Origin: Polytrichum commune
Taxonomy: Eukaryota > Streptophyta > Polytrichopsida > Polytrichales > Polytrichaceae
Direction: 5' to 3'
NCBI GenBank assembly: GCA_950295325.1
Contig: OX485804.1
Location: 30,566,001 to 30,630,000, forward strand
DNA: 64,000 bases
Positions within the stretch are counted from its first letter, which is position 1; the number at the start of each line of letters is the position of its first letter. The position numbers and the translations under genes are program-made. The notes below the pieces were generated by a model. It did no database searches. It was not told the DNA's origin and saw only the letters and a list, made by a program, of their open reading frames with translations. Of this stretch, positions 56-59,613 are shown piece by piece.

Positions 56-211
56 TGTGAGGTCAAACCACCCACCCTTATGCGTCCTAGTCCGGGTGAG
101 GGCATGGGGATCACATTCATGTTTATATAACTCCCTCTTCCCAACTTCGTAAAGATCCATTACATCTCTCATCAACTTTGGCACACCAATTTATTCCATG
201 ACATGAGTACA

Positions 212-227
212 AGCGTTGACAAACGCT
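212..227 (-). promoter_or_regulatory. Conserved LTR palindrome (copy E)
   Basis: AGCGTTGACAAACGCT: a perfect 6-bp stem with a 4-base loop. TTTATT (AATAAA in the inferred sense) lies 16 bases away at 190-195. The same module occurs in all six LTRs of the family that include this region, with covarying stem bases. It may be a poly(A)-region RNA hairpin or a palindromic binding site. Confidence 0.7.
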
Positions 228-477
228 CTTCTCTATTATCACAATCCTAACACACCCTATTGCGACCCCACAATCACTTACATCAAAATTCACCCCTTAA
301 TCCCACCATCTAATGACTCGTGGTCCCCTAACTGGCTAATGAACTAATTATTTAAATTAATATTATGTACTAACCTAATTAACTAAGCTATAATATAGTC
401 TAGTGTAAACTATTAATTCCCCCCCCCTTTCACCACTTCAGTCTTAAACCCTTAGGTAACGGCCTAGCTGCCGAATA

Positions 478-915
478 CTAGCAGCCTCCCCCGAATCCTT
501 ACCCAGCTGCTAATGTTGGCAGCCTCCTTCGAATCCTTACCCAGCTGCTAATGTTGGCAGCCTCCTCCGAATCCTTACCCAGCTGCTAATGTTGGCAGCC
601 TCCTCCGAAATCCTTACCCAGCTACTGCATCGGCTTGCTGCCTCCTCAGAATCCTTTCCCAGCTGCTAATTGCTATTAGCCTGCTCCGAAGCTACCAGTA
701 TGCTCCGAAATCCTTACCCAGCTGCCGCCTCGGCTTATTGCCTCCTCATAATCCTTTCCCAGCTGCTAATTGCTATTAGCCTGCTCCGAAGCTATGAGTA
801 TGCTCCGAAATCCTCACCCAGCTGCCGCCTCGGCTTGCTGCCTCCTCATAATCCTTTCCCAGCTGCTAATGCTGGCAGCCTCCTCCGAAATCCTTACCCA
901 GCTACTGCCTCGGCT
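478..915. repeat. Tandem repeat inside LTR copy E
   Basis: About ten imperfect units built around the phrases CAGCTGCTAATG, GCAGCCTCCTCCGAA and TCCTTACCCAGCTGC. A basic unit of ~37 bases comes first; a longer compound unit (~110-120 bases) repeats from ~620. No other LTR copy in the window carries this array. Confidence 0.9.
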
Positions 916-1304
916 TGCTGCCGAGAGAGAGAGGGAGAGAGAGAGATTCAACAAAACAAACCACAACCCTTAAACCCCTTCCATCTAAAAATAACCCCAA
1001 TCCTATCCACTAAACCCTCAACCCCTAAACCAACATGGAAAGGTCTTAATTCGAACAATTAAACCTCAAGGCCCTTCCCCTTATTTAACACACACACTCT
1101 CAACTTAATTCACCCAATCCCCTAACGCCACTAATCCTTTAATTAACCACACTAAATAAGCCTAAGGCCTAAAACATAAATCCACACCAAGCCTCACTCT
1201 TTTTAATACTTTTTGTTGCTTCAATAACGATGTCAATTGCAACTCCAAGCAAATTTTAAATATAAAACGAATATGAGCAACCATTTTGGGCTCATAGGCT
1301 CACA

Positions 1305-2265
1305 CCAGCACTACAGCCCGCCACAGGGGAAGGTACTAAAACAAAATACAAGGAACAATGCAATAACATCACTGGATCCTCTTCCCCAAAACAACACTTA
1401 AGCGGAAATTGAAAGTGACCGCAACCAACTGGCACCCGCCTACAGTTGGTGGTCAAAATGAAAAGCCCATGTTGCTTAGGAAAAGAAAATTGCATAAGCA
1501 CATCTCTCATCTCCCGCTACAACATAAAATATTTTCCTCCCTTAAATCCCTGGAATTTGTGTTTCTAAACACAATTCGCCCTTAACAATTATCTTGTTGA
1601 GTCGAATGGTGATTCCATATGCCAATTCGCTCCACCCCTCGGCAATCCCTCGACAATCTAATAAACCTATCCCAAAATAAATCCTATACATATTCCCAAA
1701 TAAATTCCAACAACAATATAATAAACCTATCTCCAATTAAATTCCAATGCCCTTATTTTCCTTCTAATAAAAAAAGAAGAATGAAAATCCCCGTTTTTGA
1801 CAAGTACCTCTATCAAGTCGTTGTGGAAGAAAAAGAAGCTAACCGCAAATTCGCCGAGATCCCACGTCCTCCGCGTGTTACCGGATGCTCCCACGAACCT
1901 TTCCCGCAATGCTCCACCTCTCTCAACAAATTGATTTTGGTACCAAACCTCCCACAACCCCCAAGGAAGTTGAGAAAATGCTCTTAATTTTTTCGCCGAA
2001 GTTTGTTATTCAAAAATCCAAGAATTGCACGTTCTTCAAAAATTTGAACACCCCCAACTTTCGTTTTTAATTAATGAAACACCCATGGAGAAGGTCTCCG
2101 TCAAGATACATATCTCTTAGATCCAAGGAATTTGTATCTCAATTTATTATATTTCTTTTTTGTATTAAAAAATACAAATAAAAATAAGATGATTGTATTT
2201 TTATTAAAAATACAAATATTAAAATATTAAAAACAATAGTCTTTTTTTAAAATAAAAAATAAAAA
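1305..2265. other. Unassigned sequence right of the nested LTRs
   Basis: This is moderately AT-rich sequence with no protein family or RNA gene I recognise. If the outer LTR ends at 1304, its target duplication should start here as CCAGC (1305-1309); the partner lies outside the window. Short frames on both strands (for example 1619-1987 plus) show no recognisable domain. Confidence 0.5.
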
Positions 2266-2267
2266 GA

Positions 2268-2580
2268 CCCCCTGCCCCCCCCCCTGCAGCAGCAGCAGCA
2301 GAGGAGGGGGGGGGGCTTAGGCTTGGGCTTAGGCAGATGGAGGGGGCTTGGGCATAGGCTTAGGGGGGAGGGGCTTAGGCGTAGGGGGGAAGGGGGAGGA
2401 AGGTGAGGAGGGGGGGGGGGGGAAGGTACAAGGGGGGAGGTACCGGGAGGAAGAGGGGGGAGCCGCGGGCCCGGGCCACCGCCGTGTGCCGCCGTGTTGT
2501 AGAGCTCCGGAGCCGTCGAGGAGCTCCGACTCCCAGAATTGGCTACTTTTTTTTTTAATTTTTTTTAATTTTTTTTTTGA
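2268..2580. repeat. G-rich low-complexity tract with CAG run
   Basis: A C-run (~2273-2284) leads into a short CAG run, then ~200 bases of G-rich sequence built on GGGGCTTAGGC-like phrases and poly-G runs, ending in T-rich sequence at 2548-2578. The frame at 2348-2584 is a glycine/glutamate translation of this tract. The many G-runs could form quadruplexes. Confidence 0.8.
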
Positions 2581-2584
2581 ATGA

Positions 2585-3314
2585 AATCACACTTGATTCA
2601 AAATCAAGAGTGTTCTTGACAAGCTCAATAATGTGAATTCAAGCTTGCAAGCGAACAAATAACACGAAATTCCGTGGAGAATTCAAATATTTCTCACCAC
2701 AATTCAAAGAGGCACCACATTGAAGACTGAGGCATCACCCTCTCGTCTCCAACACGACACAATGACTAGGGAATTACCCTCTACAACGGATAACAACAAA
2801 AACAATTACTAAAATCCTTCCTTAATTAATTATCAAACTCACTTTGAAGAATGTCATACCTTAAGCAATTCGGGCTCCCCCTACAAGTTAGCACTCACCC
2901 TCGACCGTGATTCAACCTGACTTCAACCCTAGCAATTATCAAACGACAACTTCTAACTCTAGAACATTGAATGCACAACATCTAAATTTGGAAACTCACC
3001 CCAAGGTGAGTGTCAAAGTTGAATCTTCCTAAAATTAATTATTCCTCTAAGATTTAGTGAACTAGTGGTCGCGCTATTAATGTTATGTCCTTATGCCATC
3101 CCAAGAAGGTTTAGAACATCACCTCAAGCCCCGCTCCTTCCTCAAGACAAAAATGACTAAATGAAATTACAATTCATCCCAAAGGAAAGAACTTAAACTA
3201 AACTAATCAAATAACAAAAAATCAAAACCCAATGAAAGTACTCACCTTGCACCAAGTGCTCCTTCCTCACCCTCTAGTTCATGCCTCCAAACTTCCAATA
3301 TCCTAATCCCACTT
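2585..3314 (-). mobile_element. Putative untranslated leader of an LTR retrotransposon (minus strand)
   Basis: This stretch lies directly downstream (minus strand) of the primer binding site at 3315-3334 and should be the 5' leader and start of the internal region of the element with the LTR at 3339. I see no gag open frame or other coding motif, so it is non-coding leader or strongly decayed. The boundary at 2585 is a guess, set by the G-rich tract. Confidence 0.4.
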
Positions 3315-3334
3315 CACTCCCGGCGGACGCACCA
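3315..3334 (-). other. Primer binding site complementary to tRNA-Gly(UCC)
   Basis: On the minus strand the LTR terminus (..TGACA at 3339) is followed by four bases and then TGGTGCGTCCGCCGGGAGTG. From memory, plant tRNA-Gly(UCC) ends ..CCCGGCAGACGCACCA; its complement agrees at about 18 of the first 19 positions. This placement a few bases after an LTR end is diagnostic of a 5' LTR and fixes the family's sense direction independently of the AATAAA evidence. Confidence 0.72.
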
Positions 3335-3338
3335 TTTA

Positions 3339-3780
3339 TGTCAGCTACAAACCCCCACCTTTAAGTGTCGTAATCCAGGTGGAGGCCCATGGCTCACACA
3401 CGAGCCTTCTTCTTCTTACCTCAATAATCAAGTGTTGAATGCATTCATTTATTCATTTGGACCAAGACGATGAGTGTTTAGAAACACTCACCACATCCTG
3501 ACCATCCACAATACATCATGCGCCACATGAACACCCAACACAACATTCATCCATTTAATCCAATCCCTTCACACATGTAGGGAATCCTTGCTAATTAATC
3601 TTTGTCCCTCTAATTCCTAATTCTCTGATCCCTAATCTCCTAACTTCCACTTTCTAATCCCCCCTATTAGCCACTAACCCCTACTTACTACCCCCTACCT
3701 ATATCTCCAACAATTGCTCGGTGCCAGTGCAGCTGGCTCCCTCGAAGGGACTCCCCTGTCTTCCCAGTCCCTTGGCCAAC
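3339..3780 (-). mobile_element. Partial LTR, copy F, with adjoining primer binding site
   Basis: On the plus strand it begins TGTCAGCTACAAACCCCCACC and continues with phrases parallel to the other copies (a CACCTTTAAGTGTCGTAATCC block where copy E has CACCCTTATGCGTCCTAGTCC). It carries the palindrome AGTGTTTAGAAACACT at 3473-3488, with TTTATT at 3448-3453. The sense start of the LTR (GGGCTCACA on plus) is not found; the sequence runs into the copia fragment near 3780. This is a truncated 5' LTR. Confidence 0.6.
3473..3488 (-). promoter_or_regulatory. Conserved LTR palindrome (copy F)
   Basis: AGTGTTTAGAAACACT, stem of 6. Sense-strand AATAAA is the complement of 3448-3453. The stem combination (T-A and G-C at positions 3 and 4) is unique to this copy. 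Confidence 0.68.
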
Positions 3781-4985
3781 CGGTCATCCACTGAAAGTCA
3801 TTGATTTCGTGCTCTTATTGTGTTTCTACAAATGTTCGGAACTCCTTAAACCTCTCAAACCATTTTTCTTTGGATTTCATCATGTGAACCCACACCTTCT
3901 TTGAAAATTATTAACAAAAGTAACAAATTGATTGCCCCTCCCATGGACATGTCCCTCATTGGGCCACAAATACCTGAATATACAATCTCCAAGGATGTTG
4001 TTGTTTGTCTCTCCACATCGTTGTCCCACTTCACCGCATATTGCTTACCTTCCGTGCATTTTTTGCAAACCAATGTAGAGGTGGGACAAGAAATATTATG
4101 TAAATTCATGCCCCTTAATATACTTTGGAGTGCAAAAATGTTCATCGCATTCAAATGTCCAAGTCGGCGGTGCCAAAGCTCCATTGAACCACCTCTCCCA
4201 TGTGAATGTACGAAGTTGGCCGCTTCTGCTCTGCATACCTCCGTAAAGGTCATTTGGTATAAATTCCTTTCACGTCGAGCTATTGCAACCATGTCGCCAT
4301 TCGCACCTCCTACAATGCATTTGTTTATGCGAAATTATACCCTCAACCCTTTTGATAAAAGTTTGTTCACCGAAAGCAAGTTTGCTTGCAACTTGGGCAC
4401 ATGAAGCACATTCATGATACGAATTTACTCATTTTGCTTTTTGTTTCAATTCCCATGACAGTGGACTCCATTTTGATGACTTCGGCCACCCTTTCACCAT
4501 CCAAACAGACGTTGCATGGAGAAATTACCTTGTATGTATCAAATGCCGCCTTATACGAAGTCATATGCTTTGTGGCTCCCGAATTCATTATCCATTGCAA
4601 ACGCTCCTCAAATGTGCTCTGATACCTCCAAATACGCGAGCTATTTCACAAGCGTTTTGACCTTGTTTACGTGGTCCAACAAGTCATCACTCCTTTGCAT
4701 TTTGTACATGAAGAATTTGCGAAGAACGTAGAGATATTGGAATTTTTTGTCATATGAATATTGCAAAGAGTCCCCCACGCTTCCGTTGGTCTTTTGCAAC
4801 TCTTGATGTGTATAAGTTGGTTGTCCACCAAGTTGAGGTTGATGATGGACATGGTCTTCTTGATGCGCCTATAGTACTCCTTCAACATTTTGGAATCCGC
4901 ATTAGAAGGTGGAATTTTTTCGTATATGTCCACAATGTCCTAAAGGTCCATGGAAGCCAAGACTATGTCCATTTTAACTTCAAAA
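3780..4985 (-). pseudogene. Decayed Ty1/copia gag-protease-integrase fragment
   Basis: Read on the minus strand from ~4985 down, three parts follow in copia order. First is a gag (UBN2-like) segment with PPSNADSKMLKEYYRRIKK and LVDNQLIHIKSCK. Next is an aspartic-protease segment reading IMNSGATKHMTS, in which the family D-S-G-A motif has become N-S-G-A. Then comes a gag-pre-integrase segment with LHVPKLQANLLSV and ELWHRRLGHLN, plus a CKKC pair. Integrase begins with LEIVYSGICGPM, where copia elements normally have H-S-D-V-C-G-P-M, so the first catalytic Asp is lost as well. The frame is broken by several stops and shifts. The gag zinc knuckle and spacer before the protease are missing, and integrase stops at ~3780 before reverse transcriptase. 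Gag would assemble the particle; protease and integrase would process and insert the element. This copy can do neither. Frames on the opposite strand at 3901-4731 are shadows. Confidence 0.9.
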
Positions 4986-5089
4986 AGCTAAATTATTCCC
5001 CATGAAACTTGTCCATGATTCTAGTTCCTTTACTATTGAGACATGCCATTTTATGCTCAAGAATGGTTGTATGCTCAAAATTCTTAAAT

Positions 5090-6500
5090 CAAATCTTTAA
5101 GACCTAAAATGCACCCCTAATATACCCAACTTATGCCCTTGCTCAACGAAGGTATTTATTCTCAAATGAAATATTTTAGTCATTTTATGCCTTGATTTGT
5201 TCAAGTTTCATCTTCTTCTTGTCAAAATACACTCTTGTACATCAACGCCTTAGCTTTATCCCTTAAAACACTCAAGTATGCTCCCTTTGAGCTTAAATGA
5301 CTCGCTTATCCTCCATATATTATTTTCAACACTGAAATTACTCAAAACACTCAAGTATCCTCTTATTGAGCTCAAATTACTATCCTCTCTATCGAGTAAG
5401 CATTTCAACACTCACATGGCCCAAGTCAAATCATTTCAAACTCCATATACGCTCAATGCCCTCAAAGAAACCCTCAAATATTCGAGTCAAATTCAAATAA
5501 ACGCCTCATACTCTAAATGTATCATTTAAATCTCCAATGAATCCTCTTGCCTTGAAATTATGTGTTTCCATTCAAATCCACTAAAACCAATCCATTTCAG
5601 TTCAAAAATGTTTTCATGGTGTCAAATGGGCTTTTGGACTCTCAAATCATTCAACTAAAATCTAGGTCAACACAAATAAGAGTTTTTGCTCTCAAACATG
5701 CCCTAGAACTATCAAATCACTCAAGTTAGGTCTTCTTCACCTCAAATGACTTTGCTTCGTCTCCAAAGTGGCAAAAGACACTATACTCATTCAAGTTAGA
5801 TCTCTCACACCTCAATAGAAGTTCTAAGACATTGAAATTACTCAAACAATATCTCTTTCAACTCAAATGTGCCTTAAATTTTGAAATACCTCAAGCCAAA
5901 TGTTCTACACCTTGAAAGAAGTATCGAGACACTCAAATCATTGAAATAATATTTTCTTCACTCCAAATGTGTCTTACACTATCAAGTAACTCAAGTAAGA
6001 TCTTCTACACATCAAGAGAAGTTATGAGACACACAAATCTTTGAAATAAGATTATCTACATTCTCAAATAACTTAAGTCATGTCTTCTACACCTCTAGAA
6101 AAGTCTTGAGGCTCTTATAACTTCTTGAACGGTTTCAAACAAGTCTTTCAACACTCAAACCTCATAAATAAACCTCAAACCACTAAAAAGAATCAAATCA
6201 AATACTTTTGAAATATAAACACCTCAAAAACTCTCAAATTATCTTTTCAACACTCAAATCTCACAAGTTGGATCATCTTGGACTCTAAACATCACAAATG
6301 CTTTCAAATAAGCCTCTCAACCCTCAAGGCTTATAAATCAGATGCCCTTGGAGTCTAAACACCTCCAAACCTCTTAAATAAACTTCTCAACACCCAAAAC
6401 ATTAAAGTCACATGTTTTTGAAGTCTAAACACCTCCAAACCTCTCAAATAAGCTTCCCCCGCACTGAAAACACTCAAGTCAACACTCTTTGAATCAAACA
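5090..6500. repeat. Degenerate tandem array (CTCAAA-rich)
   Basis: The region is dominated by CTCAAA, ACTCAAG and CTTCTACACCTCAA phrases. Between ~5700 and 6090 the phrase YTTCTACACCTCAA..GAAGT recurs at about 80-105 base spacing. From ~6230 to 6470 a better-kept unit of ~71 bases (AAATAAGCTTCTCAACACTC ... GAGTCTAAACACCTCCAAAC) repeats at least three times. Long frames here, such as 5278-5529 plus, are repeat translations. It looks like an old satellite or a variable LTR/UTR repeat. Confidence 0.75.
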
Positions 6501-8390
6501 AACATTCAAGCAAAAACAAAACACAAAACAACACTTACAACAACCAAATGCACCATCTCAAATGCTCCGAAGCTTCAATGCGCCAACTCCTCGAGATTTA
6601 CTCTGTAACCTCAAAACACTCAAATCTCTAGGCACTTCATTTGCATGCGTGGGCGCATAACCTATTAGAACTCAATAAGATTAGAGATGAGATTGCACAA
6701 GTAAAATCACATACACAAAGGCATATGAACAATGCTTGGAATGAGATGGTCATCCTCACCCCTTGCATTGTCCTTTATTGCTCATTTTCAACTTGGTTTT
6801 CACAAATAACAAGGGATGACTCTTCTCCCACTACGGACCAGCCTTGTAGGCTTATTATTATTAATGGGTTTCTTCACTCCTTCCTTGCTCCATTAACTAG
6901 TTTACCGTTTAGTCACACCTACGCCTTGCAAAGACCATGGGTGGGCCCCTTTGCTATTGCAACTTGCAATTAATTGCTATTTGAGGAGCCTAAAAAACAT
7001 TCTCTCATCTTTATATTTTTCTATGAGCATAGCAATGAATGACCTTGGTATCTTACTTGATTGCGCAATGATTATTAATTTATAGTTTTTTTCCTTAGAT
7101 ACTTTTGCTATGCGTAAAAGTTTAGTTGTAATAAATAAATGATTTGTGATCCCGTATATATTTATGAAAATGGAATGGGTTTATTTTTTTCTATATAAAA
7201 TAAAGTTGTTGCCTCCAACATTGTATATTTGACATGTCATCGTAGGCGTGTGTTAGCAATGGACTATTGTATTGCTTGTACTCAATGTGGTAATTTATTT
7301 CTAACTCTTTTGATAAGTTGCATTTTTTTGTTACACGAGGCCTATATGATACTACTTCTATGTTCATTTAGTGATACATGTGGGCAGAGAAAAAGGCCAA
7401 ATTAACAAGGGATGTACGGGTTGACACCGAATCAAGGCAGAATTCAATAAGTGGTGAGCATGAATTTTTGGATAGAAAGTAGGAAATAAAGGAATTGAGT
7501 GGGAGCACAAGCCAGAAGAGAGCCCATGGAGTTGGAGGGAAAATTTGAGAAGGGGGGGGGAGGAGGATTTTTGCAATTGAATATGTGAAGGACAATTGGG
7601 AAGTTGCAACAATATGTATAAATAGGACCGAAGTTGGCAGCTTCGCCACATGAATAAGTTTATGTGGAGAAACACCAAGCAAAAGTATTAGCAGAGATAG
7701 AGAGTTGGAAAAAATGACATAAAACCATGCAATAATGGATTCCTCAAAGCACGCATGCTTTCTCTTGGAGTGGGGTCTTTGCTAGGTGACAATTTAGTTG
7801 AAGGGGTCATCAAAGAGGGTCTTGAGTTGGACATGGAATCATGAATACAACCAAGTGAATGAAGAGTTGCTTGAGTCTAACAATGACAACGAATTGAAGA
7901 AGATGCAACATCCATGGCTCAAACTTGAAGAGAAAGGCAAAATTTGGGGCCACTGTAGCATCCTTAGAGTTTGGACCCAGAAGAGGTGCCAAAGTGTGGT
8001 AGTTTGTGGACAAATATGGTGGCGGAAATGCAGAAGTTTTCAAACCTCTGCTAGCACTACAATAAAGCCTCCTTTGTTGATAGGAGGAGGTGCACACAAA
8101 TTTGTGATGGCAAAAATATATTCACGGCAAGGGCATAATTGAAGTGTTTGGTGGTCGAGCTAAAGTGGGGCGACATAAAGAGATTTAGATAAGCAATCAA
8201 GGAAATAAAAGAAACTTGGTTTTATGCAATGAGGAAAGCCCATGTGGGAAAATTTATAGGTCGGAATCATAGTCTCCATACAGAGAATAGTGGGTGCACT
8301 CGGATGTTGAAGGACGGCCATGCACAACTTGCACAGGGGGACCAATGAAACCCATCTTTCTTTTAGCAGTGGTTCCAAGTATTGATATTT
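6500..8390. other. AT-rich sequence with no recognised gene
   Basis: No domain or RNA gene was recognised. The purine-rich stretch at 7380-7690 makes overlapping minus-strand frames (7364-7678, 7368-7682) with no family signature. The plus frame 7798-8142 (114 residues, from ATG at 7798) has some basic and acidic residues but nothing I recognise. A G-run sits at ~7551-7561. Confidence 0.4.
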
Positions 8391-8394
8391 TAGT

Positions 8395-8525
8395 GAATAA
8401 TGCCAAGTGCTAAGATGAATAATGATTTTTAGATATTTTTGGTGGCACTAATTCATAGTGTAAAGGAATTTAGCATTACATTCATTAATTTCCCACCCTC
8501 ACTAATTGGTATGTGTAGTGTAGTA
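8395..8525 (-). mobile_element. Partial CACTA-type MITE (one terminus)
   Basis: The right edge reads CACCCTCACTAATTGG..GTGTAGTGTAGT, matching the complement of the element at 30404-30704 over ~130 bases. Only one terminal half is visible, so the copy is truncated. Confidence 0.55.
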
Positions 8526-10640: not shown

Positions 10641-10644
10641 TATT

Positions 10645-12289: not shown

Positions 12290-12459
12290 GGGGATCTGTG
12301 AGGCCAAACCGCCCGGCGCCCACCCTTAAGCGTCCTAGTCCGGGTGCGGGTATGGTGATCACATTCATATTCGTCCTAGTCTACCCTTCCTCCGTCATTC
12401 ATCCCCATGACATCACACATACTTTGTGTCACACCAATTTATTTCATAGTATGAATACA

Positions 12460-12475
12460 AGCGTTGATAAACGCT
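12460..12475 (-). promoter_or_regulatory. Conserved LTR palindrome (copy D)
   Basis: AGCGTTGATAAACGCT: 6-bp stem, 4-base loop. The sense-strand AATAAA is 16 bases away (complement of 12438-12443). Confidence 0.7.
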
Positions 12476-12599
12476 TTTCTCTATTGGTACTATCTTCACA
12501 CCCTCTATCAACTTCCCACACAATTGCACCCCCGATTAACCGGATAGCCAACTACCTAGCTAACCCATCCATCTTAACTTAGGGTACTAAACCCATCTA

Positions 12600-13300
12600 A
12601 CCCCTCCGTCTAACTGTCCCTTAGTAGAGCTATTGTCGCAGCACCCTTAGTATAGCTGCCGTATCAGTTCCCTTAGCAGAGCTGCTGCCCAGTTCGGCCT
12701 TCGTTCCAACTGCTATCTCAGTCACCTTAGTAGAGTTGTTGCCCAGTCGGCCTTCGTTCCAGCTGCTATATCAGTCACCTTAGTAGAGCTGCTACCCAGT
12801 CGGCCTTCGTTCCAGCTGCTATATCAGTCACCTTAGTCTAACTGCCGTATCAGTTCCCTTAGCAGAGCTGCTGCCCAGTTCGGCCTTCGTTCCAGCTGCT
12901 ATCTCAGTCACCTTAGTAGAGCTGCTGCCCAGTTCGGCCTTCGTCCCAGCTGCTATATCAATCACCTTAGTCTAATTGCCGTATCAGTCCCCTTAGCAGA
13001 GTTGCTGCCCAGTCGGCCTTCGTTCCAGCTGCTATATCAGTCACCTTAGTAGAGTTGCTGTATCAATCCCCTTAGCAGAGCTGTTGCCCAGACGGCCTTC
13101 GTTCTAGCTACTATATCAGTCACCTTAGTAGAGCTGCTGCCCAGTCGGCCTTCGTTCCAGCTGCTATATCAGTCACCTTAGTAGAGTTGCTGCCCAGTCG
13201 GCCTTCGTTCCAGCTGCTATATCAGTCACCTTAGTAGAGCTGCTGCCCTTCGTCCCAACTGCTATATCAATCACCTTAGTCTAACTGCCGTATCAGTTCG
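12600..13300. repeat. Tandem repeat inside LTR copy D (~53-bp unit)
   Basis: About a dozen imperfect units of CCTTAGTAGAGCTGCTGCCC, AGTCGGCCTTCGTTCCAGCT and GCTATATCAGTCA, with some units switched to a CTAACTGCCGTATCAGT variant. Units differ by a few bases, so copies have been homogenised or expanded recently. Not a CRISPR array: there are no unique spacers. Confidence 0.95.
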
Positions 13301-13309
13301 GCCTTCAAT

Positions 13310-13490
13310 CAACTAATCTTATAAATCCCCTCTAATTAACTATATTCTATAAATCCCCTCTAATTAACTATATTCTATAAGTTCCCTCTAATCAACTACA
13401 TTCACTAAGTTCCCTCTAATCAACTACATTCACTAAGTTCCCTCTAATCAACTATATTCTATAAGTCCCCTCTAATCAACTACATTTTCT
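13310..13490. repeat. Second tandem repeat in LTR copy D (~30-bp unit)
   Basis: About six units of TATAAGTTCCCTCTAATCAA plus CTATATTC or CTACATTCAC. This separate array directly follows the ~53-bp array and is followed by a GA-rich tract at 13525-13570. Confidence 0.93.
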
Positions 13491-13925
13491 ACCACACTAC
13501 ACAACACACACCTACACACACCCACACGAGAGAGAGAGAGAATGAGAGAGAGGAGGGAGGAATGAGAGAGGGCATCCCACAACCACGACCTCTCTAACCT
13601 TTTCCTACTTAGTAGGACCTTATCCTATCCACTAACTCCTCACCCCCTAAACCAACAAGAACATGTTCTAATTCAAACATTTAAGCCAAGGCCCTGCCCC
13701 TTGCTTCTTCAAACACTACTCACTCAACCAAAACACTCCCTAATGTCGCTAAGCTTCTAATTAACCACACAAAATGGCTTAAGGCCTAAAACATAAACCA
13801 CACCAAGCCTCACTCTTTTTATACTTTTAATTATTTCAATAACACTCCAATTGCAATTCTAAGTAGATACTAAACATAAAACAAATATGAGCAACCATTT
13901 TGGGCTCATAGGATCACACCCCCAT

Positions 13926-46101: not shown

Positions 46102-47061
46102 TATGAGCCCAAAATGGGTGCTCACAATTGTTTTATGCTTAGAATTTACTTAAAAGTTGCATTTGATGCTATTGTCAAAACATCGAAAAGCAGAAAAAAG
46201 AGTGAAGTTTGGTGTGGAATTATGTTTTAAGCCTTAGGCTTGCATGGCGTGTTTAATTAAGGGATTAGCGGAATTAGGGGTTGGGTGATTAAGTTAAGTG
46301 TGTGCGTGTTCAAGTTAAGGGGAAGGGCCTTTGGTTTAAGTGTTTGAATTAGGGCCTTCCCGTGTTGGTTTAGGGGTTGAGGGGTTTATGGATAAGGGTC
46401 GTCTCGGGTTCAAGCTGGATTTTGAAGGCAGGGACAAAAGGAAGGTAAGGGGAGAAGAACGTCGGCATTACAACCCCCAAGGAGGAGAGCCCGAAGCCCC
46501 TGATTTCAGAAGGGAGGGGGTTAGCGGCTGGAGCTAAGCTCCTGATTTCAACGGCTTTGGAGCTAAGCTCCTGATCTCGGAGAAGGGAGCCCAACTGCCC
46601 GACCCGTGACGGGCAATGACGAGTCAGCCCAGAGCCCAGACAACGTACAATCATGGCCAAAATACCGGGACTGAAGTTAAGTTAAGGGAGGGGATTAGGG
46701 GTATTAGGACCATATTATATCATGGGTTGGTTAAGTAGGGAAGGAGGGAAGGATCACATTAGGAAATTAGATTAGTAGTGTGTGAGGGGGTCACAAATGC
46801 AAGGTTGTGACATAAGGGCGTGAGCCTTAGGTAGGGATTTGATTGTGGGGTGTGATAGTGTGTAGAAGGAGGGAAATAAGTAGAGAAGAGCATTTTTCAA
46901 TGCTTGTACACTTATTGTGGAATAAACCGGTGTGCCCATGTTGATGTGGAATGCGGTGGAGGTTGATGACATCGAGGAAGTGGAACATTGTGAACAATGA
47001 ATGTGAGCTCCATGCCCCCACCCGGACTACAACGCATAGGGGTGGGTGGTTTGGTCTCACA
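46102..47061 (+). mobile_element. Solo LTR, copy B (960 bp)
   Basis: Starts TATGAGCCCAAAATGGG and ends GTTTGGTCTCACA. It is flanked by the perfect 5-bp duplication TAGGG (46097-46101 and 47062-47066). Sense is plus: the palindrome AGCATTTTTCAATGCT (46889-46904) is followed by AATAAA at 46921-46926. It is the shortest complete copy and has only a short GGAGCTAAGCTCCTGAT duplication (46528-46580) where others have long tandem arrays. Frames on both strands at 46340-46660 are not genes. Confidence 0.93.
46889..46904 (+). promoter_or_regulatory. Conserved LTR palindrome (copy B)
   Basis: AGCATTTTTCAATGCT, 6-bp stem. AATAAA lies 16 bases downstream (46921-46926), a likely poly(A) signal of the LTR. 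Confidence 0.72.
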
Positions 47062-50180: not shown

Positions 50181-50186
50181 TTCCTA

Positions 50187-51559: not shown

Positions 51560-51665
51560 TTGAGTAATGTGATGGGTATGAGGGCCAACCACTAGTTTGA
51601 ACAAAGTTGTTGGAAATATTATTGTGTGACTTTTGGTTGGCCTCCATACCCATCACATTACTCAA
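51560..51665. repeat. Short hairpin with 32-base arms
   Basis: Left arm (51560-51591) TTGAGTAATGTGATGGGTAT.. and right arm (51634-51665) ..ATACCCATCACATTACTCAA pair with one or two mismatches around a 42-base loop. No terminal motif or target duplication of a known MITE superfamily is visible. Confidence 0.85.
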
Positions 51666-51669
51666 TTCC

Positions 51670-52160
51670 TTGGCTATGTTAGGTAGGATTGGATATTGGA
51701 CGAGCATACTTCTCATTTAATTTCGGGATTCCTTGTTTATGGAGAGCATTTGGGATGTGTACTATAGAGTTTCTGACAAGGACCCATAATCTATCAAAGT
51801 TTTCCAATCGCAACCTCTTGCTTTGGAAAGAGACCATCATTTAGTTGCTTAATAATGTTATGCCCACCTAAGGTATGTTTCCAAAGCTCAAGCTTTATGT
51901 AATCGTGCTTTTTGATTTGGGAGGAAGCAAGAAGAAGAAGAAGAAGAAATGTTGGGCAATCCAACGTGAATTTGAGCTTGTTGGCTCTACTCAAGCATCT
52001 CCTTGGTGTAGGGTGGTGTTTGCTGCCTACCTTGCAGTGGGCGGGCTCTTGATATCTATCTATCTATCTATCTATAAATTAAAATACATTATATTGATAT
52101 CCATTTACTATGTTGGGGGGGGGGGGGAACATTGGTTCTTGTTTATTGTCAAGTTTTTTC
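51670..52160. other. Sequence left of the LINE 3' end; microsatellites
   Basis: Contains (AAG)n at ~51928-51948, (ATCT)n at ~52051-52075 and a 14-base G-run near 52116. It may include LINE 3' untranslated sequence, but I cannot place the LINE end. Confidence 0.4.
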
Positions 52161-53053
52161 TTATCAAGTACTAGGTGTGTGAGATATGTGATGGCTATTT
52201 GGTGGATGGTTTTCATTGTTTTTTATTAGTGATGTGGGAATATGTAGGTTCTCAACGGGTCATATGCTTCTTGTGCGAATGGCTCCCCTTACTCCTGCAG
52301 TGATACCTATGAGGGGTCTAATATTCCAACCTTGTGCTCTTATTGCATCTACTATCGGGTTGTATTTGTCTTCTTTTGTTTGTATGGCTTGGTCAAGAAA
52401 TCTATCATGCATAGAGGTGGAATCAATGATTTGGGTGATTAGGTCTGGTGTAGGTATTAGTGGATCATTTTGTTCATATGCAACACCTTATATGTAGATG
52501 ATATCCAATCTTAGTTTTGTGAGGCATTAACATCGTGTAGTATTGCATGTGCAACTTAGGATCCCAGGCGGGATGGTGTTGTCTTGGTGGTTGCCATGTT
52601 GGTTACCGGCATTAATGAGTGTAGGGTGTCTAGTGTATACATTTAATTTGAGTAGGTTGGTGAGTTGGTGGGCAATGGCATTGTGTCTTGCGATTCTTAA
52701 GCCTTTTAGAAATTTATTGCTACATAGAGAGAGTAAGTGCGGCCAACTACCTTTGTCGTTCGTTTGGCATAATGTGGAGTTGGGGTTGGTGTGTATGTGT
52801 GTGTGTGGCTAGAAGAGTTTTTTTTTTTTCTATAATTGCCCATGTATTGGGCAAATCGGAACTTGAGGAGTTATGTGATTTGTGCGTCCATAGTTGGTGG
52901 GATTTCCTAGAAGTGGTTAAACAGTTTGTGGTGAATTTCCTCATTGGAGAGCCATTTTTTTGCATATGTAATTTTTATGGTTCTTTCTTTTGTGAGCCTA
53001 TTGTGTTATGTTTTTATGAATGTTTGTAGGTTCCTTATTATGCCTAGTAGGTT
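52160..53053 (-). pseudogene. LINE C-terminal region (decayed)
   Basis: On the minus strand, below the RNase H piece at 55545-55128, the coding remnant continues. It reads IRNLQTFIK and AKKWLSNEEI, then KFRFAQYMGNYRK (53050-52830). Next come GLRIARHNAIAHQLTN and NAGNQHGNHQDN (52740-52540), then KEDKYNPIVDAIRAQGW and IGITAGVRGA (52462-52232). I recall this order from C-terminal parts of plant LINE polyproteins carrying RNase H. Several stops and shifts break it. Solo LTR C separates it from the rest of the LINE. Plus-strand frames here are shadows. Confidence 0.72.
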
Positions 53054-54743
53054 TGTAAGCCCTAAACTCCCACCCTTATGCGTCGTGGTCCGGGCGAGAG
53101 CCTAGAACTCACATGTGATTGACTGACCTTCCTTAGCAATTGTGACTCGCTTCCAAGTTCCATGATGTAAATGCCAATACGCGCAACTTTTTATTCAAAG
53201 ACACAAGGTGACAAGTATTTAGAAATACTCTACTCCCTCGTAGTCATTGCCACACACAATCACCTAATACACCCCCACACACACTCTCAAGCCTCCAACT
53301 TGCGACAGTGAGCTACTTAACTAACCTAAGCAATTTCTAATGGCATCAAGGCAACACCAATTACACATTTGGCTTCCCCATGCTTGCCTCTTCAATCCGA
53401 ACACTCAGCTACTCTACCACACCCTAATCCACCACTTAATGCTCCAACACCTACCATGACTAAATTCTTCACTATTCACTAACCAACATCCAAGCTTTTC
53501 TTGGCCCTCTTACCCCTTGCACACACTCAATGGGCCTCCCCTGTTTCGGGAACTGTGATGCTTCTCCACCTCCCAGCTCCAGTTATTGAACTCGTCCGAT
53601 TACTGTTCAATGTCAAATTGCTCTTCCTAACCTCCCATGTGGCGTCCCTCCACTTCCAGCCACGATGGCAGTCACAACTCCCTTATAGAGCTGTGGAGGC
53701 ACAGTCACCCAGAGTTCAACCTCAACCGCAAGCACACAGAGGTTGGCGGCTCATGAAGGCCCCCTTTTAGCCTATGATTCCAACTGCTGTAGCGATCTCG
53801 CCCTGACCTCCTCGGCAAGAACTTCGGCAACTAAGTCCTCATCTGTGTTGCCGGAGCTGCTGGCACCTTCATCTTTTGGACTGGCCAGGGGCAACCACTC
53901 TTTAGCGGCAGATTCAACCTCCTGACGTCCGCACCGTTGCTTTCATCAACATCCCGGCCTGTCATGATACACTGCAGCCAGGTGCTCAAGGTGACATCAA
54001 TCTTCCTCCTCCCCTGCTCGGCCATTGCTGGCTTCCCTTGACCCTTGAGTCTTGGCCTCCAGGTCGATTCGGCAATGCCCCTGAAATTCCGTAGCTCCCT
54101 ATTCCGGCAATCTTCCTTCAGTGTCGAAGCCAACTCCCCAATAGCCCTTCTAGGTCCAACTGCTCTAGCCTTTCACTCTCTGTCGCCTCCACATTTTCTC
54201 CTTCCATCTAATATTCACATCCTTGAATTGGCATCCTGCCAGCTATTCCTCTCAACCCCTAATCCTCACTTAACACTTGATGCTACCTGAGCCTCAGAAG
54301 CCCCACACAACCCCCATCTTCTTTCCTGCATTCTTCCTTGCCGCTTCCAGCAGCAACCCCCGCCTTCCGCAAGCAGGACCTTACCAACAAAGAAGAGAGA
54401 GAGAGAGCCGAGAGCCCCCATGGGCCTTATGTTCAGATTCCCGGGATTATCCACTTAGTTCTAACCTCTCCTTAAATGAACAACAAAAGGGCCTAATTCC
54501 CACAATAGAATTTGGCTTCACATGGTTGGCCTTAAAAATCACTTAATCTTTAACGAATCCCCAATCCATCCTTCTAAATTCCTAGCAGTAAATAACTTCC
54601 AACCCAACCTTTTGAACTAATTCAAATCTAAACTTTGGAACATAATTCTTGTTGTCTTTTGAACTTTTCATGCAAATACAAAGACTAAGGTTTTAATAAT
54701 TTTTAGGATTAAAAACACATGTGAGCACGCCATTGGGCTCACA
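53054..54743 (-). mobile_element. Solo LTR, copy C (1690 bp), inserted in the LINE
   Basis: On the plus strand it starts TGTAAGCCCTAAACTCCC and ends CATTGGGCTCACA. It is flanked by the perfect 5-bp duplication AGGTT (53049-53053 and 54744-54748). The palindrome AGTATTTAGAAATACT is at 53214-53229, with TTTATT at 53190-53195. A GA tract lies at ~54391-54408. The LINE reading resumes on both sides, so the LTR landed inside an existing LINE. Frames between 53501 and 54546 have no recognised domain. Confidence 0.93.
53214..53229 (-). promoter_or_regulatory. Conserved LTR palindrome (copy C)
   Basis: AGTATTTAGAAATACT; sense-strand AATAAA at the complement of 53190-53195. Confidence 0.7.
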
Positions 54744-54780
54744 AGGTTGGTGCTTGAGGGAGGTTTAGCTAATCTATATG

Positions 54781-55103
54781 CACTAGTAGAAAACTATTTG
54801 AAAAAGAACTGCAGTCGTTTTTCCATTGCGGTTCTTTTGACCACCCTGCTAAAAGACTGCAGATTTTTTTTTTCTCATTTTTTTGACAATAATTTTATTA
54901 ATTTTGGGGCGTGTAATACACGGTTGGAAAGCTATTTTCAAGACCTTTCCAACGGTATATCAAAAATCCCCAAAATTTCAAATATTCAGCTGGTAAACCA
55001 AAAAAAGAGTTTGCAGTTGTTTTACGACTGCAAAGCAGGGTGGTCAAAAGAACTGCAATGAAAAAACAATTGCAGTTTTTTTTTGCATAGTTTTCTACTA
55101 GTG
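54781..55103. mobile_element. CACTA-type MITE (323 bp), inserted in the LINE
   Basis: Starts CACTAGTAGAAAACTAT and ends ATAGTTTTCTACTAGTG, perfect inverted ends. It is flanked by the 3-bp duplication ATG (54778-54780 and 55104-55106). Internal arms (TGCGGTTCTTTTGACCACCC and GGGTGGTCAAAAGAACTGCA) also pair, making most of the element a hairpin. LINE codons continue on both sides. Confidence 0.95.
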
Positions 55104-56240
55104 ATGGTATGGTGGGCGGTATGGGTGTTATGTGCCTTTTGAGGTGCCGTCATTTGAAAGTGAGTTGGCCATGTCATTTCCCGTAATTCTTGTGTGAGCT
55201 CTAACTTTTTGGATTGTTATTTTGTGTCGGACCCATGTTATGTGTTGAACTATAGATGTTATTAGTAGTTTGTCCAGGTGATTATGTTGGGAGGATGGGC
55301 GTCCTACGTGGTTGTTGATGAGGTAGATACTATTGAGGCTATCCGTAAAGATATGTATGTCGTGATTGACTTCTTGTGTGTTGGCAAGTGCTAACCAAAT
55401 AACATCCAATTATGTTTTAAGAATGTTTTGAAATCCTAGGAGTCTTTTATTTGTATGTTGTTGAGTTGGCTATATACTTCCTAATCCCATGAGGTTTCCG
55501 TTTCCATACCGTTTGGTGGCATAAAAGACCCATCCGTGTAGATCCTTTGGGATGGGTCGGGATGGGTTGTATTTTGTGGTTGGGGGTTATAGAACTCGGT
55601 TGGTATCTGGTGGATTTGTGCTACAAGTGGTGTGGGTAGTGGGTAAGATGTTTTGAGGGAATTTGTCCATTTGTCTGATATGTTAAGTTTTGTATTGCTT
55701 AATGGTAGGTGTGGGGTTGTGTGTGGGTATGTGTAGGTTGTAAGCTTCTTGAATGATTTATTGGAGTTGTGGGGTGAAGGTGTAGTTTATGGGTGGGGAG
55801 TCTTGGCTATATATGCATATGATTGTTGAGTGAGGTTTCTAGGTGGTTGTAGTAGGAGGGCCATTGGGGTGCGGATGGGTATTGAACGACGTTTAGTCGA
55901 ATGGTGGCTATGGTATGAATGTCTTGGTATTCTGCTAGGTCTAGTTCTTTGGGGGGAGGGGGGGGGGGGGTCCAATCTTTACGTTTTAGGGTCATGATGG
56001 TGATATTGCGTGGGTTTCTTTGGTTGCCATACTGGCCCAGTGTATGAATTCTGTTGTTGTGCGATGATTTGCCGGGTGTGCATAGCTTGCGCCGTTCCAT
56101 TTTGAGTATAGTGTGTGGCCTTATGAGCTGAAGATGATATCTCTAGTATGTGGTGAGTTGTACCTTTTGGGTAGAAGTGGGTATGTGAGAGATATGAATC
56201 CCCAAAGTGGTCCACCACTCCGTGGGATCACTTTTAGTTA
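55104..56240 (-). pseudogene. LINE fragment with type I RNase H domain
   Basis: Minus strand, 56230 down to 55104. The upstream part (56218-55790) is Pro/Gln/His-rich with PKELDLAEYQDIHT. Then comes a type I RNase H domain. IYTDGSFMPPNG (~55540) holds the first catalytic Asp, HIFTDSLNSIYLINNH (~55345) a later Asp, and KVRAHTRITGNDMANSLS (~55180) the conserved His/Asp region. RNase H would remove the RNA template during target-primed reverse transcription. A stop follows YTDGS (..TSWD then stop) and at least one frameshift is present, so the protein is dead. The reverse transcriptase core (YADD-type) is not seen. Reading continues past the MITE and LTR C into 53053-52160. Confidence 0.85.
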
Positions 56241-57437
56241 GGATTTTAGAATTAACAGTTAGAATTGATAGGGAATTGGAGACAAATTAGTTTATTTAGC
56301 ATTTAGCTTCAAAAAAGGGAAGGTGAATCACTGAGAACTTCGGGCCTTCATCCGTGAAGGAAAAAAACTAATTAAGGTAGGGGTAGTCAAAAGAAAACTA
56401 ACTTGTGGTAGAAACTAGTTAAGTTAGAAAAATTGTTATCTAAGAAAGAAACTAGCTTAGCGGGAATAAATACTAGCTAGTAGAAAAAACTAGCTAAGAG
56501 GCTAAGTTAGTAGAGGCCAACTCAGCAAGACAAGTGGAGGTGTTCGGCGTAAGAGGTAAAATTAGCGTCAAGATTTTTTGAAAAAGAAGAAGAAGTAAGG
56601 GGCCCACTTAAATAGATCTCCTTGTTAGCTATCTAAAGGTGAATGACAAGCCCTTATCAGAGTAATAATAAATTAGTTTTGGATTTTTGAAACTGAAAGT
56701 TAAATAGGTGGAGGTGGAATGATTGGTTGAATGGACATTGTGCTTCTACGCCTCATAACTTTTGCAATTTTTATCCGATTGGAATGGATTTTAAGTCTCT
56801 CAAAATTGATGACATGTACTAGTAGATTAATTATATTGAAACTAAAATTTTAGTGTATAATAGTGATATTTTGACCATTGAACAACCTAAGTCTCACAAA
56901 TAAATTAGCTAAAAAAAATATGATAAGATAAATTCTTGAGAAGTGTAGCGAGAACTAGGAATGTCCATTAAAGGGTTGAGGGAAACGTTTGGAGCACATT
57001 TTGAAAATTTGGAGTAGGACAAGGAGGTAGCGGCTTGGCCTACATCAAACCCAAATCGAACAAGGAACACTCAAGTAAGCCAACTATTGCCTTTTGTTTA
57101 GGATTAGAAGGAGCGCGGCCAAGGTGTGCATTCTTAAACCCACTCACTTATCTCGTAAGGTTAAGTGGTTTAGCCATTTGATTGCCAAGGAGGATATTCA
57201 ATTCTGTTATTCTTGGGGCCCTTTGGTATGTTTCGGGGTAATAACTTTGATTATTAGAAAAAATTCATGTATGGTGAAGTTAGATTAATCACCGGTACGA
57301 CCATTCTACATGTTGTTGGTGGAAATGTGAGGTTGATGACCTACAAATCCACTATTGTGTTCTTGACCTCATAGATTGGGAGTTATGGTCCCAATCCATG
57401 AAGATTATGCAATTGATTGAATATACATATTGCATGT
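56240..57437. other. Left part of an insertion separating LINE pieces
   Basis: LINE-like coding stops near 56240. AT-rich sequence with many ACTAGCTAAG/ACTAGTTAAG phrases at 56390-56510 follows, up to solo LTR A. I could not identify it. Confidence 0.4.
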
Positions 57438-58143
57438 TACCATGTGAGCCCAAAAGGGTGCCCACATTTAGTCTTAGACCCTTGAAACGTTAGTTGATGC
57501 ACTTTAAAGTAGCATGTTACTTCACAAAAATATAAAAAGAGTGAAATGTTAGTCTTAGAAGTACCATGTTGTAAGAGGCTAGGATGTGAGTTGTTATTGT
57601 GTTTTTACCTTCGGAAGGATTTGAGTGAATGAGGATAGGTAAGGAGAACTTGGATTGAGTAGTTAGTGAGTAGGCTAGTACAAATGGATGGAGACAACCA
57701 AAGTGACTCAAGAGGCAAGTGCATTCGAATTGGGATGAATGGAGGATCACATGGAGCGCACAAGTGGACCACCTCATCATGGCCACTTAATGGGGAAGGC
57801 CCAAGGAAGAATGCAAGGTGGAGGATAAGCAAATTCTCAAAGCACCAATCAAATCACGAGTTAAGCATCGTGGTTTGAATTAAGTGGTGAGCGACGATTT
57901 GGGAAAGTAAGGGGAGAAAGTTATGGCGGCGGAAAGCGAAGGAGGCTAAGTTTGGGTTGAAGCATCCCAAGTTTGGTAAAGTGTGGTAGGTAGAAAGCCA
58001 AGGCTAGTTAAATGTTCGAATTAGGATCCTTGTTGATCATTTGAGGGAGGAAGGCTTAGAAGATAGGATTGGCGCCTACTAAGTAGGAGGAAATCTCAAG
58101 GGCTTATCGTGAGCCTTGAGGGTGCTCACCCCCTCAAGCTTAC

Positions 58144-58150
58144 TATATAA
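58144..58150 (+). promoter_or_regulatory. TATA box candidate of LTR copy A
   Basis: CTATATAATCCCTCATTC with a pyrimidine-rich stretch just downstream, which is common around plant transcription starts. The placement upstream of the palindrome and tandem array fits an LTR promoter (U3/R boundary). Confidence 0.5.
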
Positions 58151-58664
58151 TCCCTCATTCTTCCCTCACTCATCCTCTCTTTCCTTTGTGCTCCAAGGCA
58201 CCCCACGAGTTATAAGTGTGGGTGTGGGAAGCCATATTGGAGCACATGTGTGTGCTTAGTTTTTAGTTTGAGAGCCAAGGCTTGTTAGCCTTGAAGAGGG
58301 CTTGACCTCTTGGTAGAATTAGTGTTGACGTGAAGGATTTTAAAGTTAATTCATGATTCCAATTTGTGGTACTTAAAGTTCATGTTTTGAATACACGTGG
58401 TTGTAAGTTCCATGTTTAAGAGTTGAGCACTTGATGTTGTGATGAGTGCCAAAATATACTTGTGTGGATTAGTTAGTCTTAGTGAAGTTAGGAAATTCTC
58501 TCTCCCCCTCTCCTCTCTAGGATTTTAGGATTTTAGGATTAGAGAAGAATTGTGTGATTAGAAAGGGGTTGTTAGTAGAATTAGGGAAATTAGGTAGGAA
58601 GATTAGTTAAGGGCTTGAATAATTAGTGAGGTAGTTGGGGATTACAACTACAAAGTTGTGGGTT

Positions 58665-58905
58665 CATGAAGGAGCTGGGTTTATGAAGGAGCTGGGTTTG
58701 TTTAGTTAGAAAGTAAAGAGCTGGGTTTATGAAGGACCTGGGTTTGTTTAGTTAGAAGCTAAGGAGCTGGGTTCATGAAGGAGCTGGGTTTATGAAGGAG
58801 CTGGGTTTGTTTAGTTAGAAGCTAAGAAGCTGGGTTTATGAAGGAGCTGGGTTTATGAAGGAGCTAGGTTTATGTAATTAGAAAGTAAAGAGATGGGTTC
58901 ATGAA
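58665..58905. repeat. Tandem repeat inside LTR copy A
   Basis: Units of GAGCTGGGTTTATGAAG (17 bases), alternating with GTTTAGTTAGAAGCTAAG, about ten in all. Unlike the arrays in copies D and E. Confidence 0.93.
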
Positions 58906-59167
58906 GGAGCTTAGTAGATAGCCTACCTAATTAGCTCATAGACAAGTAGTTAGTTACATTATGTTAGTTAGTGTTATGTGTGGCTTTCACAAGTAAATGT
59001 ATTTGAGATTGACTATAGAGAATAGTGTTTTTTTTTAACACTTGCATCCTCTCTTTAAAAATAAACCACGTGCACAACTTAAGGAAGAATGTGGAGCACT
59101 CTCGCGATGGCAAGACAAAGGAAGCAAAGACCAAAGGTGCGAGGGAGAGATTGACATAAGTCACATA

Positions 59168-59183
59168 AGTATTTCTTAATACT
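59168..59183 (+). promoter_or_regulatory. Conserved LTR palindrome (copy A)
   Basis: AGTATTTCTTAATACT, stem of 6; same AGYRTT..AAYRCT form as the other copies. Confidence 0.68.
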
Positions 59184-59613
59184 TAAAGGCTTATGTACGG
59201 TATGGAGACACCAAGTGAGACCTCTTATAGTAGCGATACGGAATACACAAGTGATAGTTCAAGTGGTAGTATAGAGTCAACGGCACGGACTCCATTTAGG
59301 AGAGGGATATCCTTAAGGGCTTGTGTAGCTAAAGCAGCCGGATGGACGTTAGAAGCAAACAAAGACAAAATAGCACCCGAGCATAAGGAGGTTAAAATAA
59401 CATAGTTAACTTGTGCATTCTCCACATACGTATTGAAATCGTACATTGAGTTGTTAAAAGTGAAATTCCAGTTAAATCCAAGACCACTTGAAGGGTGAAC
59501 CTTGCACTATGGACTCATCCAAGTCCAAATCCAATACCGCGGAGGAATGTGAGCCCAAACCCACTACTCGGACTACGGACGCTTAAGGGTGGGGGGTTTG
59601 GCCTCACATACCA

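What the first reader, a model, noticed from the sequence alone, without database searches (positions are those of the whole stretch)
56..59608. Covarying 16-base palindrome shared by six LTRs
All six LTRs that include this region have AGYRTT-NNNN-AAYRCT: AGCGTT/AACGCT (E, D), AGCATT/AATGCT (B), AGTATT/AATACT (C, A), AGTGTT/AACACT (F). All four base-pair combinations at stem positions 3 and 4 occur, and pairing is kept every time, while sequence around it has drifted heavily. In the sense direction set by the primer site, five of six have AATAAA 12-22 bases after it. That suggests a selected RNA hairpin in the poly(A)/R region, for example acting in polyadenylation or first strand transfer, or a palindromic protein site. 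I know of no description of it for this element.
Basis: partly seen in the sequence, partly recalled or inferred. Interest (0 to 1): 0.85.

Follow-up and report, generated by a model that had tools for sequence, protein, structure and literature searches.

The report
Conserved RNA hairpin in retrotransposon ends
Many families of one plant Ty3/gypsy retrotransposon group carry the same small hairpin just before the poly(A) signal in their long terminal repeats, and its two sides mutate together in a way that points to a working RNA structure in the element's own transcript.

Summary
The finding holds up, with one correction. All six pattern matches exist (chance 0.11), but the match in LTR A (59168) is a different palindrome. 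A's true counterpart is AGTGTT-T7-AACACT at 59024-59042. With it, all six LTRs have AATAAA 16-19 nt after the stem.

In 154 placed LTRs (149 fetched copies, 5 from the window), stem pairs 3 and 4 are Watson-Crick in 142 and 143; independence predicts 77 and 82. They rank second and first for covariation among 8385 column pairs, and 0 of 400 tree simulations reach either. Parsimony counts 11 double changes. One per cluster: 119 of 132 paired, best shuffle 104.

Genome-wide beside an AATAAA, broken pair 3 is sense-strand U.G in 95 rows and C.A in 18. That favours sense RNA over a DNA palindrome or protein site.

The elements are Ty3/gypsy. I read the hairpin as an R-region structure acting in poly(A) site use; that function is inferred. 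The loop resembles the histone mRNA stem-loop and the host encodes SLBP: a bold lead that the young A family contradicts.

The parts
212..227 (-). LTR E inner hairpin, sense AGCGTT-TGTC-AACGCT
190..195 (-). LTR E AATAAA, 16 nt 3' of the stem in sense
71..98 (-). LTR E second stem near the LTR edge (CACCC/GGGTG arms, conserved loop between)
   Evidence: read; homologous places
56..1304 (-). LTR E, TG...CA ends; end beside the primer site at 56
   Evidence: read
3473..3488 (-). LTR F inner hairpin, sense AGTGTT-TCTA-AACACT, with a long outer helix in the predicted fold
3448..3453 (-). LTR F AATAAA, 19 nt after the stem
3322..3334 (-). primer-site-like TGGTGCGTCCGCC, 4 nt outside LTR F (LTR edge at 3339)
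   Evidence: same motif beside LTRs of other elements
12460..12475 (-). LTR D inner hairpin, sense AGCGTT-TATC-AACGCT
12438..12443 (-). LTR D AATAAA, 16 nt after the stem
12297..13918 (-). LTR D, TG...CA ends
   Evidence: read
46889..46904 (+). LTR B inner hairpin, sense AGCATT-TTTC-AATGCT
46921..46926 (+). LTR B AATAAA, 16 nt after the stem
53214..53229 (-). LTR C inner hairpin, sense AGTATT-TCTA-AATACT
53190..53195 (-). LTR C AATAAA, 18 nt after the stem
59024..59042 (+).
59060..59065 (+). LTR A AATAAA, 17 nt after that hairpin
59168..59183 (.). AGTATTTCTTAATACT in LTR A: a different palindrome, not homologous to the other five

Best explanation
It is a small RNA hairpin in the sense transcript of a diverse group of plant Ty3/gypsy elements: a 6-bp stem AGYRUU/AAYRCU with a U-rich, mostly 4-nt loop (commonest form U-N-U-A/C), often extended by a weaker outer helix. 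It sits between a UG-rich stretch on its 5' side and AAUAAA, usually 16-21 nt on its 3' side. Shown here: the sequence, its place by the AAUAAA, the covariation at two stem pairs, and the bias of broken pairs at pair 3 towards sense-strand G.U. Inferred: because it stays with the AAUAAA even in the A family, where the LTR edge is about 410 nt further away, it most likely acts in 3'-end formation. It would bring the UG-rich far-upstream element and the AAUAAA near-upstream element together, or control use of the poly(A) site that occurs twice in the RNA. A role of the same hairpin in R during strand transfer may come on top.
For: Covariation: 142 and 143 of 154 cells Watson-Crick at pairs 3 and 4, against 76.6 and 81.5 expected; pair 4 first and pair 3 second of 8385 column pairs, 0 of 400 tree simulations as high for either; 11 Watson-Crick to Watson-Crick changes at the two pairs on the tree; 66 flank clusters: 119 of 132, best of 20,000 shuffles 104. 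RNA and strand: pair-3 breaks next to AATAAA are sense U.G in 95 rows and C.A in 18, controls 1 and 1; in the sample 10 against 1; tree changes to wobble 14, to A.C 5, over pairs 3 and 4. Sense direction set by the reading frames of the same elements. Outer helix: mean -11.38 against -9.83 for swapped partners, best of 60 swaps -10.44; helices of 6 or more Watson-Crick pairs in 16 of 66 clusters, best of 200 swaps 13. Place: AATAAA 16-21 nt after the stem in 135 of 154; 17 nt in A. The stretches 25-40 and 40-60 nt upstream have 4% and 7% C, about 36% G and 35% T, in 66 cluster representatives.
Against: No RNA data: start site, poly(A) site and hence R are not mapped, and TATAWA was not found at a constant distance within about 400 nt upstream. 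At pair 4 the sample shows no strand bias (G.U 5, A.C 4); pair 4 was not tested for strand genome-wide. Rows are copies, not independent events; some families recur. The plain number of paired cells (136, 137) is reached by some simulations whose columns hardly change; only the covariation measure is not. The outer helix is weak: with G.U allowed, mean longest helix 5.98 against 5.67 swapped with a best swap of 6.11, 44 of 66 with 6 or more pairs against a best swap of 43, and the reverse strand also exceeds its swaps. 19 of 154 lack an exact AATAAA. The loop is 7 U in the A family. Nothing here separates poly(A) control from strand transfer or packaging.
Confidence: 0.55

Rival explanations
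1. The hairpin is a sense-RNA structure kept for reverse transcription or packaging (first strand transfer through R, or Gag binding), and the poly(A) signal beside it is only a neighbour.
For: If transcription starts upstream, the hairpin lies in R and so at both RNA ends. Two more possible stems lie between it and the LTR edge: CACCC/GGGTG (sense pair C-G 125, U-A 7, U.G 16, C.A 4 of 152 parsed of 164; 132 paired, shuffles mean 121.3, best of 5000 shuffles also 132) and a 5-bp mini-hairpin (251 of 315 pairs in cluster representatives, best of 2000 swaps 247). That would make R-U5 a structured leader.
Against: Distance to the LTR edge and primer site is about 410 nt larger in family A while the AATAAA still follows at 17 nt. 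The common loop sequences are not self-complementary, so loop-loop dimerisation is unlikely (inference).
Confidence: 0.25
2. Histone stem-loop mimic: the hairpin is bound by the host's stem-loop binding protein (SLBP) and so couples the element's RNA to S-phase processing, export or translation.
For: 6-bp stem, 4-nt loop U-Y-U-M in 72 of 146 copies and 39 of 62 cluster representatives with 4-nt loops (U-N-U-N in 130 and 53), G-C at pair 2 in 137 of 154, purine-rich 5' flank. These fit in part the recalled consensus GGYYYU-UYUM-ARRRCC. The host encodes SLBP: Pfam PF15247 over its cut-off in two neighbouring exons, both matching SLBP structures.
Against: No Rfam histone stem-loop hit. Stem positions 1 and 4 differ from the recalled histone consensus. 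The 3' flank (commonest letters U, G, U or A, A) is not the recalled ACCCA. The A family has a 7-nt loop and 8 of 154 copies a 5-nt loop. Host histone genes were not examined.
Confidence: 0.1
3. A palindromic DNA site for a dimeric host protein, or a DNA cruciform.
For: The inner 16 bases are an inverted repeat and pairs 1, 2, 5 and 6 vary little.
Against: A degenerate half site predicts independent variation of the halves, not covariation. Neither a protein site nor a cruciform predicts the sense-strand wobble excess at pair 3.
Confidence: 0.05
4. No selection: shared ancestry plus CpG decay of AGCGTT/AACGCT.
For: YR at positions 3-4 is exactly the CpG decay series, and E and D copies do show single-arm decay.
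Against: Decay hits arms independently and both strands alike. Observed are paired changes in separate clusters, 11 double changes, and 78 against 11 wobble rows after taking out the rows with one intact CpG arm (17 and 7; counted by me from the listings).
Confidence: 0.02

Closest known systems
HIV-1 polyA hairpin (PMC2645353, abstract and section list seen)
   Same: A hairpin at the poly(A) signal in LTR sequence, present at both RNA ends in HIV-1, and there known to regulate polyadenylation.
   Different: In HIV-1 the hairpin encompasses AAUAAA; here AAUAAA lies 16-21 nt downstream of the inner stem and outside it. Different element group and host; no functional data here.
Conserved LTR motifs described by profile models (PMC3601003, 12 of 23 passages found by my terms seen)
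   Same: TG...CA ends, AATAAA and a GT-rich stretch after it.
   Different: In the passages I saw no hairpin upstream of AATAAA is described, and plant Metaviridae were not modelled.
Plant Ty3/gypsy non-chromoviruses (PMC6317226, 12 of 23 passages found by my terms seen)
   Same: Ty3/gypsy polyprotein domains in large elements.
   Different: Clade within Ty3/gypsy not determined here; no LTR hairpin in the passages seen (I did not search that paper for hairpins).
Histone mRNA 3' stem-loop with SLBP (consensus and molecular details recalled)
   Same: 6-bp stem, often a 4-nt loop U-Y-U-M, G-C second pair; host has SLBP.
   Different: Next to AAUAAA instead of replacing it; stem pairs 1 and 4 differ; loop length varies; no Rfam match.

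Membership tests
Ty3/gypsy LTR retrotransposon | Protease, RT, RNase H, integrase in this order | tested here: met
   L162 piece of an A element: RVT_1 at residues 1-153, RNase H at 218-348, Integrase_H2C2 at 449-505, rve at 524-621; L164 of a D element: RT, RNase H, H2C2; protease in L161 at E 1.2e-4, 23.1 bits, just below its cut-off of 24.3; no domain in the D piece L163
Ty3/gypsy LTR retrotransposon | LTRs with TG...CA ends, primer site just inside | tested here: met
   TGTGAG...CTCACA ends in E, read; TGGTGCGTCCGCCGGGAG 4 nt after the LTR in L155, at about the same place in L159, and its first 13 bases 4 nt outside LTR F; primer tRNA not identified
Retroviral polyA hairpin (HIV-1 type) | AAUAAA inside the hairpin | tested here: not met
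   AATAAA 16-21 nt after the stem in 135 of 154
Retroviral polyA hairpin (HIV-1 type) | Lies in R, at both ends of the RNA, and regulates poly(A) site use | not testable with these tools
   no transcript data
Histone mRNA 3' stem-loop | Match to the Rfam model | tested here: not met
   no such match at gathering level in the window or up to E 10 in 13 stretches
Histone mRNA 3' stem-loop | 6-bp stem with 4-nt U-Y-U-M loop (consensus recalled) | tested here: inconclusive
   39 of 62 cluster representatives with 4-nt loops fit; the A family has 7 nt
Histone mRNA 3' stem-loop | Bound by SLBP | not testable with these tools
   host has an SLBP gene; binding unknown
Retrozyme/hammerhead LTR | Hammerhead motif in the LTR | tested here: not met
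   no Rfam hit at gathering level in the window and no ribozyme hit

The most novel reading that the evidence does not exclude
A large plant retrotransposon group carries a mimic of the histone mRNA stem-loop beside its poly(A) signal and is handled by the host's SLBP, so that its RNA is processed, exported or translated in step with S phase.
Probability: 0.1. Interest if true: 0.88.

Novelty: new variant of a known kind. Interest (0 to 1): 0.62.

Why it matters
RNA structures in retroviral LTRs are well studied (recalled); my searches of an open-access library brought up no description of this one in plant LTR retrotransposons. Here one genome supplies enough diverged families to show compensatory change, the direction of the working strand and the link to AAUAAA. 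That makes it directly testable how such elements choose between the two copies of their poly(A) signal. The SLBP lead can be tested with one binding assay.

Tried and rejected
Reading A's 59168 palindrome as homologous: rejected. Known RNA family: no Rfam match at gathering level in the window; up to E 10 only two chance-level hits, ToxI and a lncRNA model. TATA box at a fixed distance to define R: not found. Terminal mini-hairpin: my first tally was off by one base and was redone; support is modest. Outer helix by longest-run counting: barely beyond swaps when G.U is allowed; the energy measure is clearer. My first location script timed out.

Dropped rows: of 164 LTRs, 10 are not in the 154. 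wA, L079 and L080 have the 7-nt-loop hairpin outside the search range; L010 and L053 have only a shifted GGCATT/AATGCC candidate; in L005, L014, L071, L085 and L116 no convincing hairpin was found. L015 and L016 were re-placed by hand at an insertion-shifted site. Placement asked for about 9 of 12 letters of the degenerate stem, so strongly altered stems and transversions are under-sampled. The 16 loci L165-L180 were picked from the wobble list and are in none of the sample counts.

Papers: 10 searches in an open-access library; one search failed on a term. Four papers on histone stem-loop, SLBP and histone mRNA were asked for and are not held, so the histone stem-loop consensus is recalled.
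Full report
What is there. The window is part of a 408 Mb genome in 64 contigs, of which seven of 42-78 Mb make up nearly all. It contains AAACCCT repeats and a Ty1/copia-like integrase fragment (my reading), so I take the host for a land plant; its identity was not established. All six reported palindromes exist. Five are homologous: they sit in LTRs whose edge next to the primer site begins TGTNAG and contains CCCACCYTTAWGCGTCSTAGTCCGGGTG or a near relative, 134-163 nt from the stem in the window copies. The sixth, in LTR A, is another palindrome; the true counterpart has a 7-nt loop.

What kind of element. Pieces of one A element and one D element encode RT, RNase H and an integrase zinc domain in the Ty3/gypsy order, with the integrase core and a weak protease match in the A pieces. 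Their reading frames are on the strand that I call sense (LTR strands), the strand on which AATAAA follows the hairpin. A primer-site-like motif follows the LTR in L155, L159 and beside LTR F. The A family is young: the 40 best of 1125 candidates match at about 100 percent, several as LTR pairs 9.2-9.4 kb apart.

Sampling. Searches with the six LTRs scored 40 places each. The queries for B, C, E and F stopped before the palindrome; those for A and D included it. I fetched 158 copies. With the six window LTRs this makes 164. The stem was located by similarity to the degenerate stem with either YR variant, not by pairing; 154 remained.

Covariation. Pairs 1, 2, 5 and 6 vary little (pair 2 is G-C in 137 of 154). 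Pairs 3 and 4 vary and stay paired: 142 and 143 of 154 against 76.6 and 81.5 expected. With one LTR per cluster of flank similarity (66 clusters) 119 of 132 cells are paired, best shuffle 104 of 20,000. On a tree of 149 distinct sequences built without the stem columns parsimony needs 5 Watson-Crick to Watson-Crick changes at pair 3 and 6 at pair 4. Among 8385 column pairs these two have the highest corrected covariation, and none of 400 simulations along the tree reaches either by the G measure; the bare number of paired cells is reached by some simulations in which the columns hardly change. The tree rests on about 160 columns and is rough.

Genome-wide. Of 4258 sites, 469 are unpaired at position 3 and 523 at position 4 (11 and 12 percent). 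For the reversed control the figures are 210 and 309 of 675 (31 and 46 percent). The 4258 include the young A palindrome, which is paired in the copies seen, so the contrast is somewhat flattering.

Which strand. A stem in RNA tolerates G.U, so wobble should be visible on the transcribed strand only. With TTTATT at 10-22 nt, sense U.G at pair 3 occurs in 95 rows (94 palindrome sites, one being listed twice) and sense C.A in 18; controls give 1 and 1. Seventeen and 7 of these rows keep one arm's CpG; the other 78 and 11 are not simple CpG decay of one arm (counted by me from the listings). Rows are copies, and some families recur. A sense C-to-T bias is not the likely cause, since at pair 2 A.C cells (G-to-A, 11) outnumber G.U cells (C-to-T, 4). 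Pair 4 in the sample shows no bias (5 against 4). The same direction appears in a second stem near the LTR edge: U.G 16, C.A 4 of 152 parsed, though its pairing (132 of 152) only equals the best of 5000 shuffles.

Fuller structure. A second helix often closes the hairpin (for example CACAAGG...CCTTGTG just before AATAAA; F and C). Over 66 clusters its mean energy is -11.38 against -9.83 for swapped partners, best of 60 swaps -10.44; the reverse strand also exceeds its swaps, -9.68 against a best of -9.18. Helices of 6 or more Watson-Crick pairs occur in 16 of 66, best of 200 swaps 13; with G.U allowed support is borderline. The loop is mostly U-N-U-A/C: first base T in 132 of 146 four-nt loops, third base T in 144, U-N-U-M in 109.

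Place. AATAAA starts 16-21 nt after the stem in 135 of 154; the other 19 lack an exact AATAAA in the up to 60 nt examined. The stretches 25-40 and 40-60 nt upstream are 4 and 7 percent C and rich in U and G, like a plant far-upstream element (recalled); a GU-rich motif lies 16-45 nt after the stem in 35 of 66. Distance to the LTR edge is about 410 nt larger in A while the AATAAA spacing is 17 nt. This is why I favour a role in 3'-end formation over one tied to the primer site. No start site could be placed, so that the hairpin lies in R is inferred.

Histone-like lead. Stem length, loop and second base pair recall the histone mRNA stem-loop. I therefore asked whether the host has its binding protein: Pfam PF15247 matches in two adjacent exons, E 7.2e-13 and 2.7e-9, both over the cut-off, and both exons match SLBP structures. 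Against it: no Rfam match, stem differences, and the 7-nt loop of the A family. I keep it as the boldest open reading, not as the verdict.

What is known. The searches showed no description of this hairpin in the listings, abstract starts or passages that I saw; the library is open-access only. The nearest analogue is the HIV-1 polyA hairpin, which contains AAUAAA (PMC2645353, abstract).

Noticed in passing
56-120 and homologous places in the fetched LTRs: A second possible stem near the LTR edge, CACCC/GGGTG around a conserved GCGTCSTAGTCC loop, with one varying pair and the same sense-wobble excess (U.G 16, C.A 4 of 152 parsed), and a 5-bp mini-hairpin next to it.
   Followed up: partly
L181:1189-1611 (G000:C7:8456455-8456868): The host has an SLBP gene (histone hairpin-binding protein), two exons over the Pfam cut-off. 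Its presence in this host may be of interest by itself.
   Followed up: partly
L165-L171, L176, L177, L179: Diverged LTRs have the stem only 10-12 nt from AATAAA; nine of these ten share the edge motif by eye (not L168), and several show an inverted repeat (GGTGT...ACACC) on the other side of AATAAA.
   Followed up: no
58985-59608: The A family is young: the 40 best of 1125 candidates match at about 100 percent, several as LTR pairs 9.2-9.4 kb apart. Its LTR carries a second, unrelated perfect palindrome at 59168.
   Followed up: partly
481-922, 12645-13248, 58659-58911: LTRs E, D and A carry tandem repeats upstream of the hairpin in sense, with different units in each.
   Followed up: no
3322-3334; L155; L159: The primer-site motif TGGTGCGTCCGCC is shared by the three places seen; the matching tRNA was not identified.
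   Followed up: no
23312: Another stretch has nearby short palindromes AGTGTTGGAAACACT and AGTGTTAGAACACT without a visible link to these LTRs.
   Followed up: no
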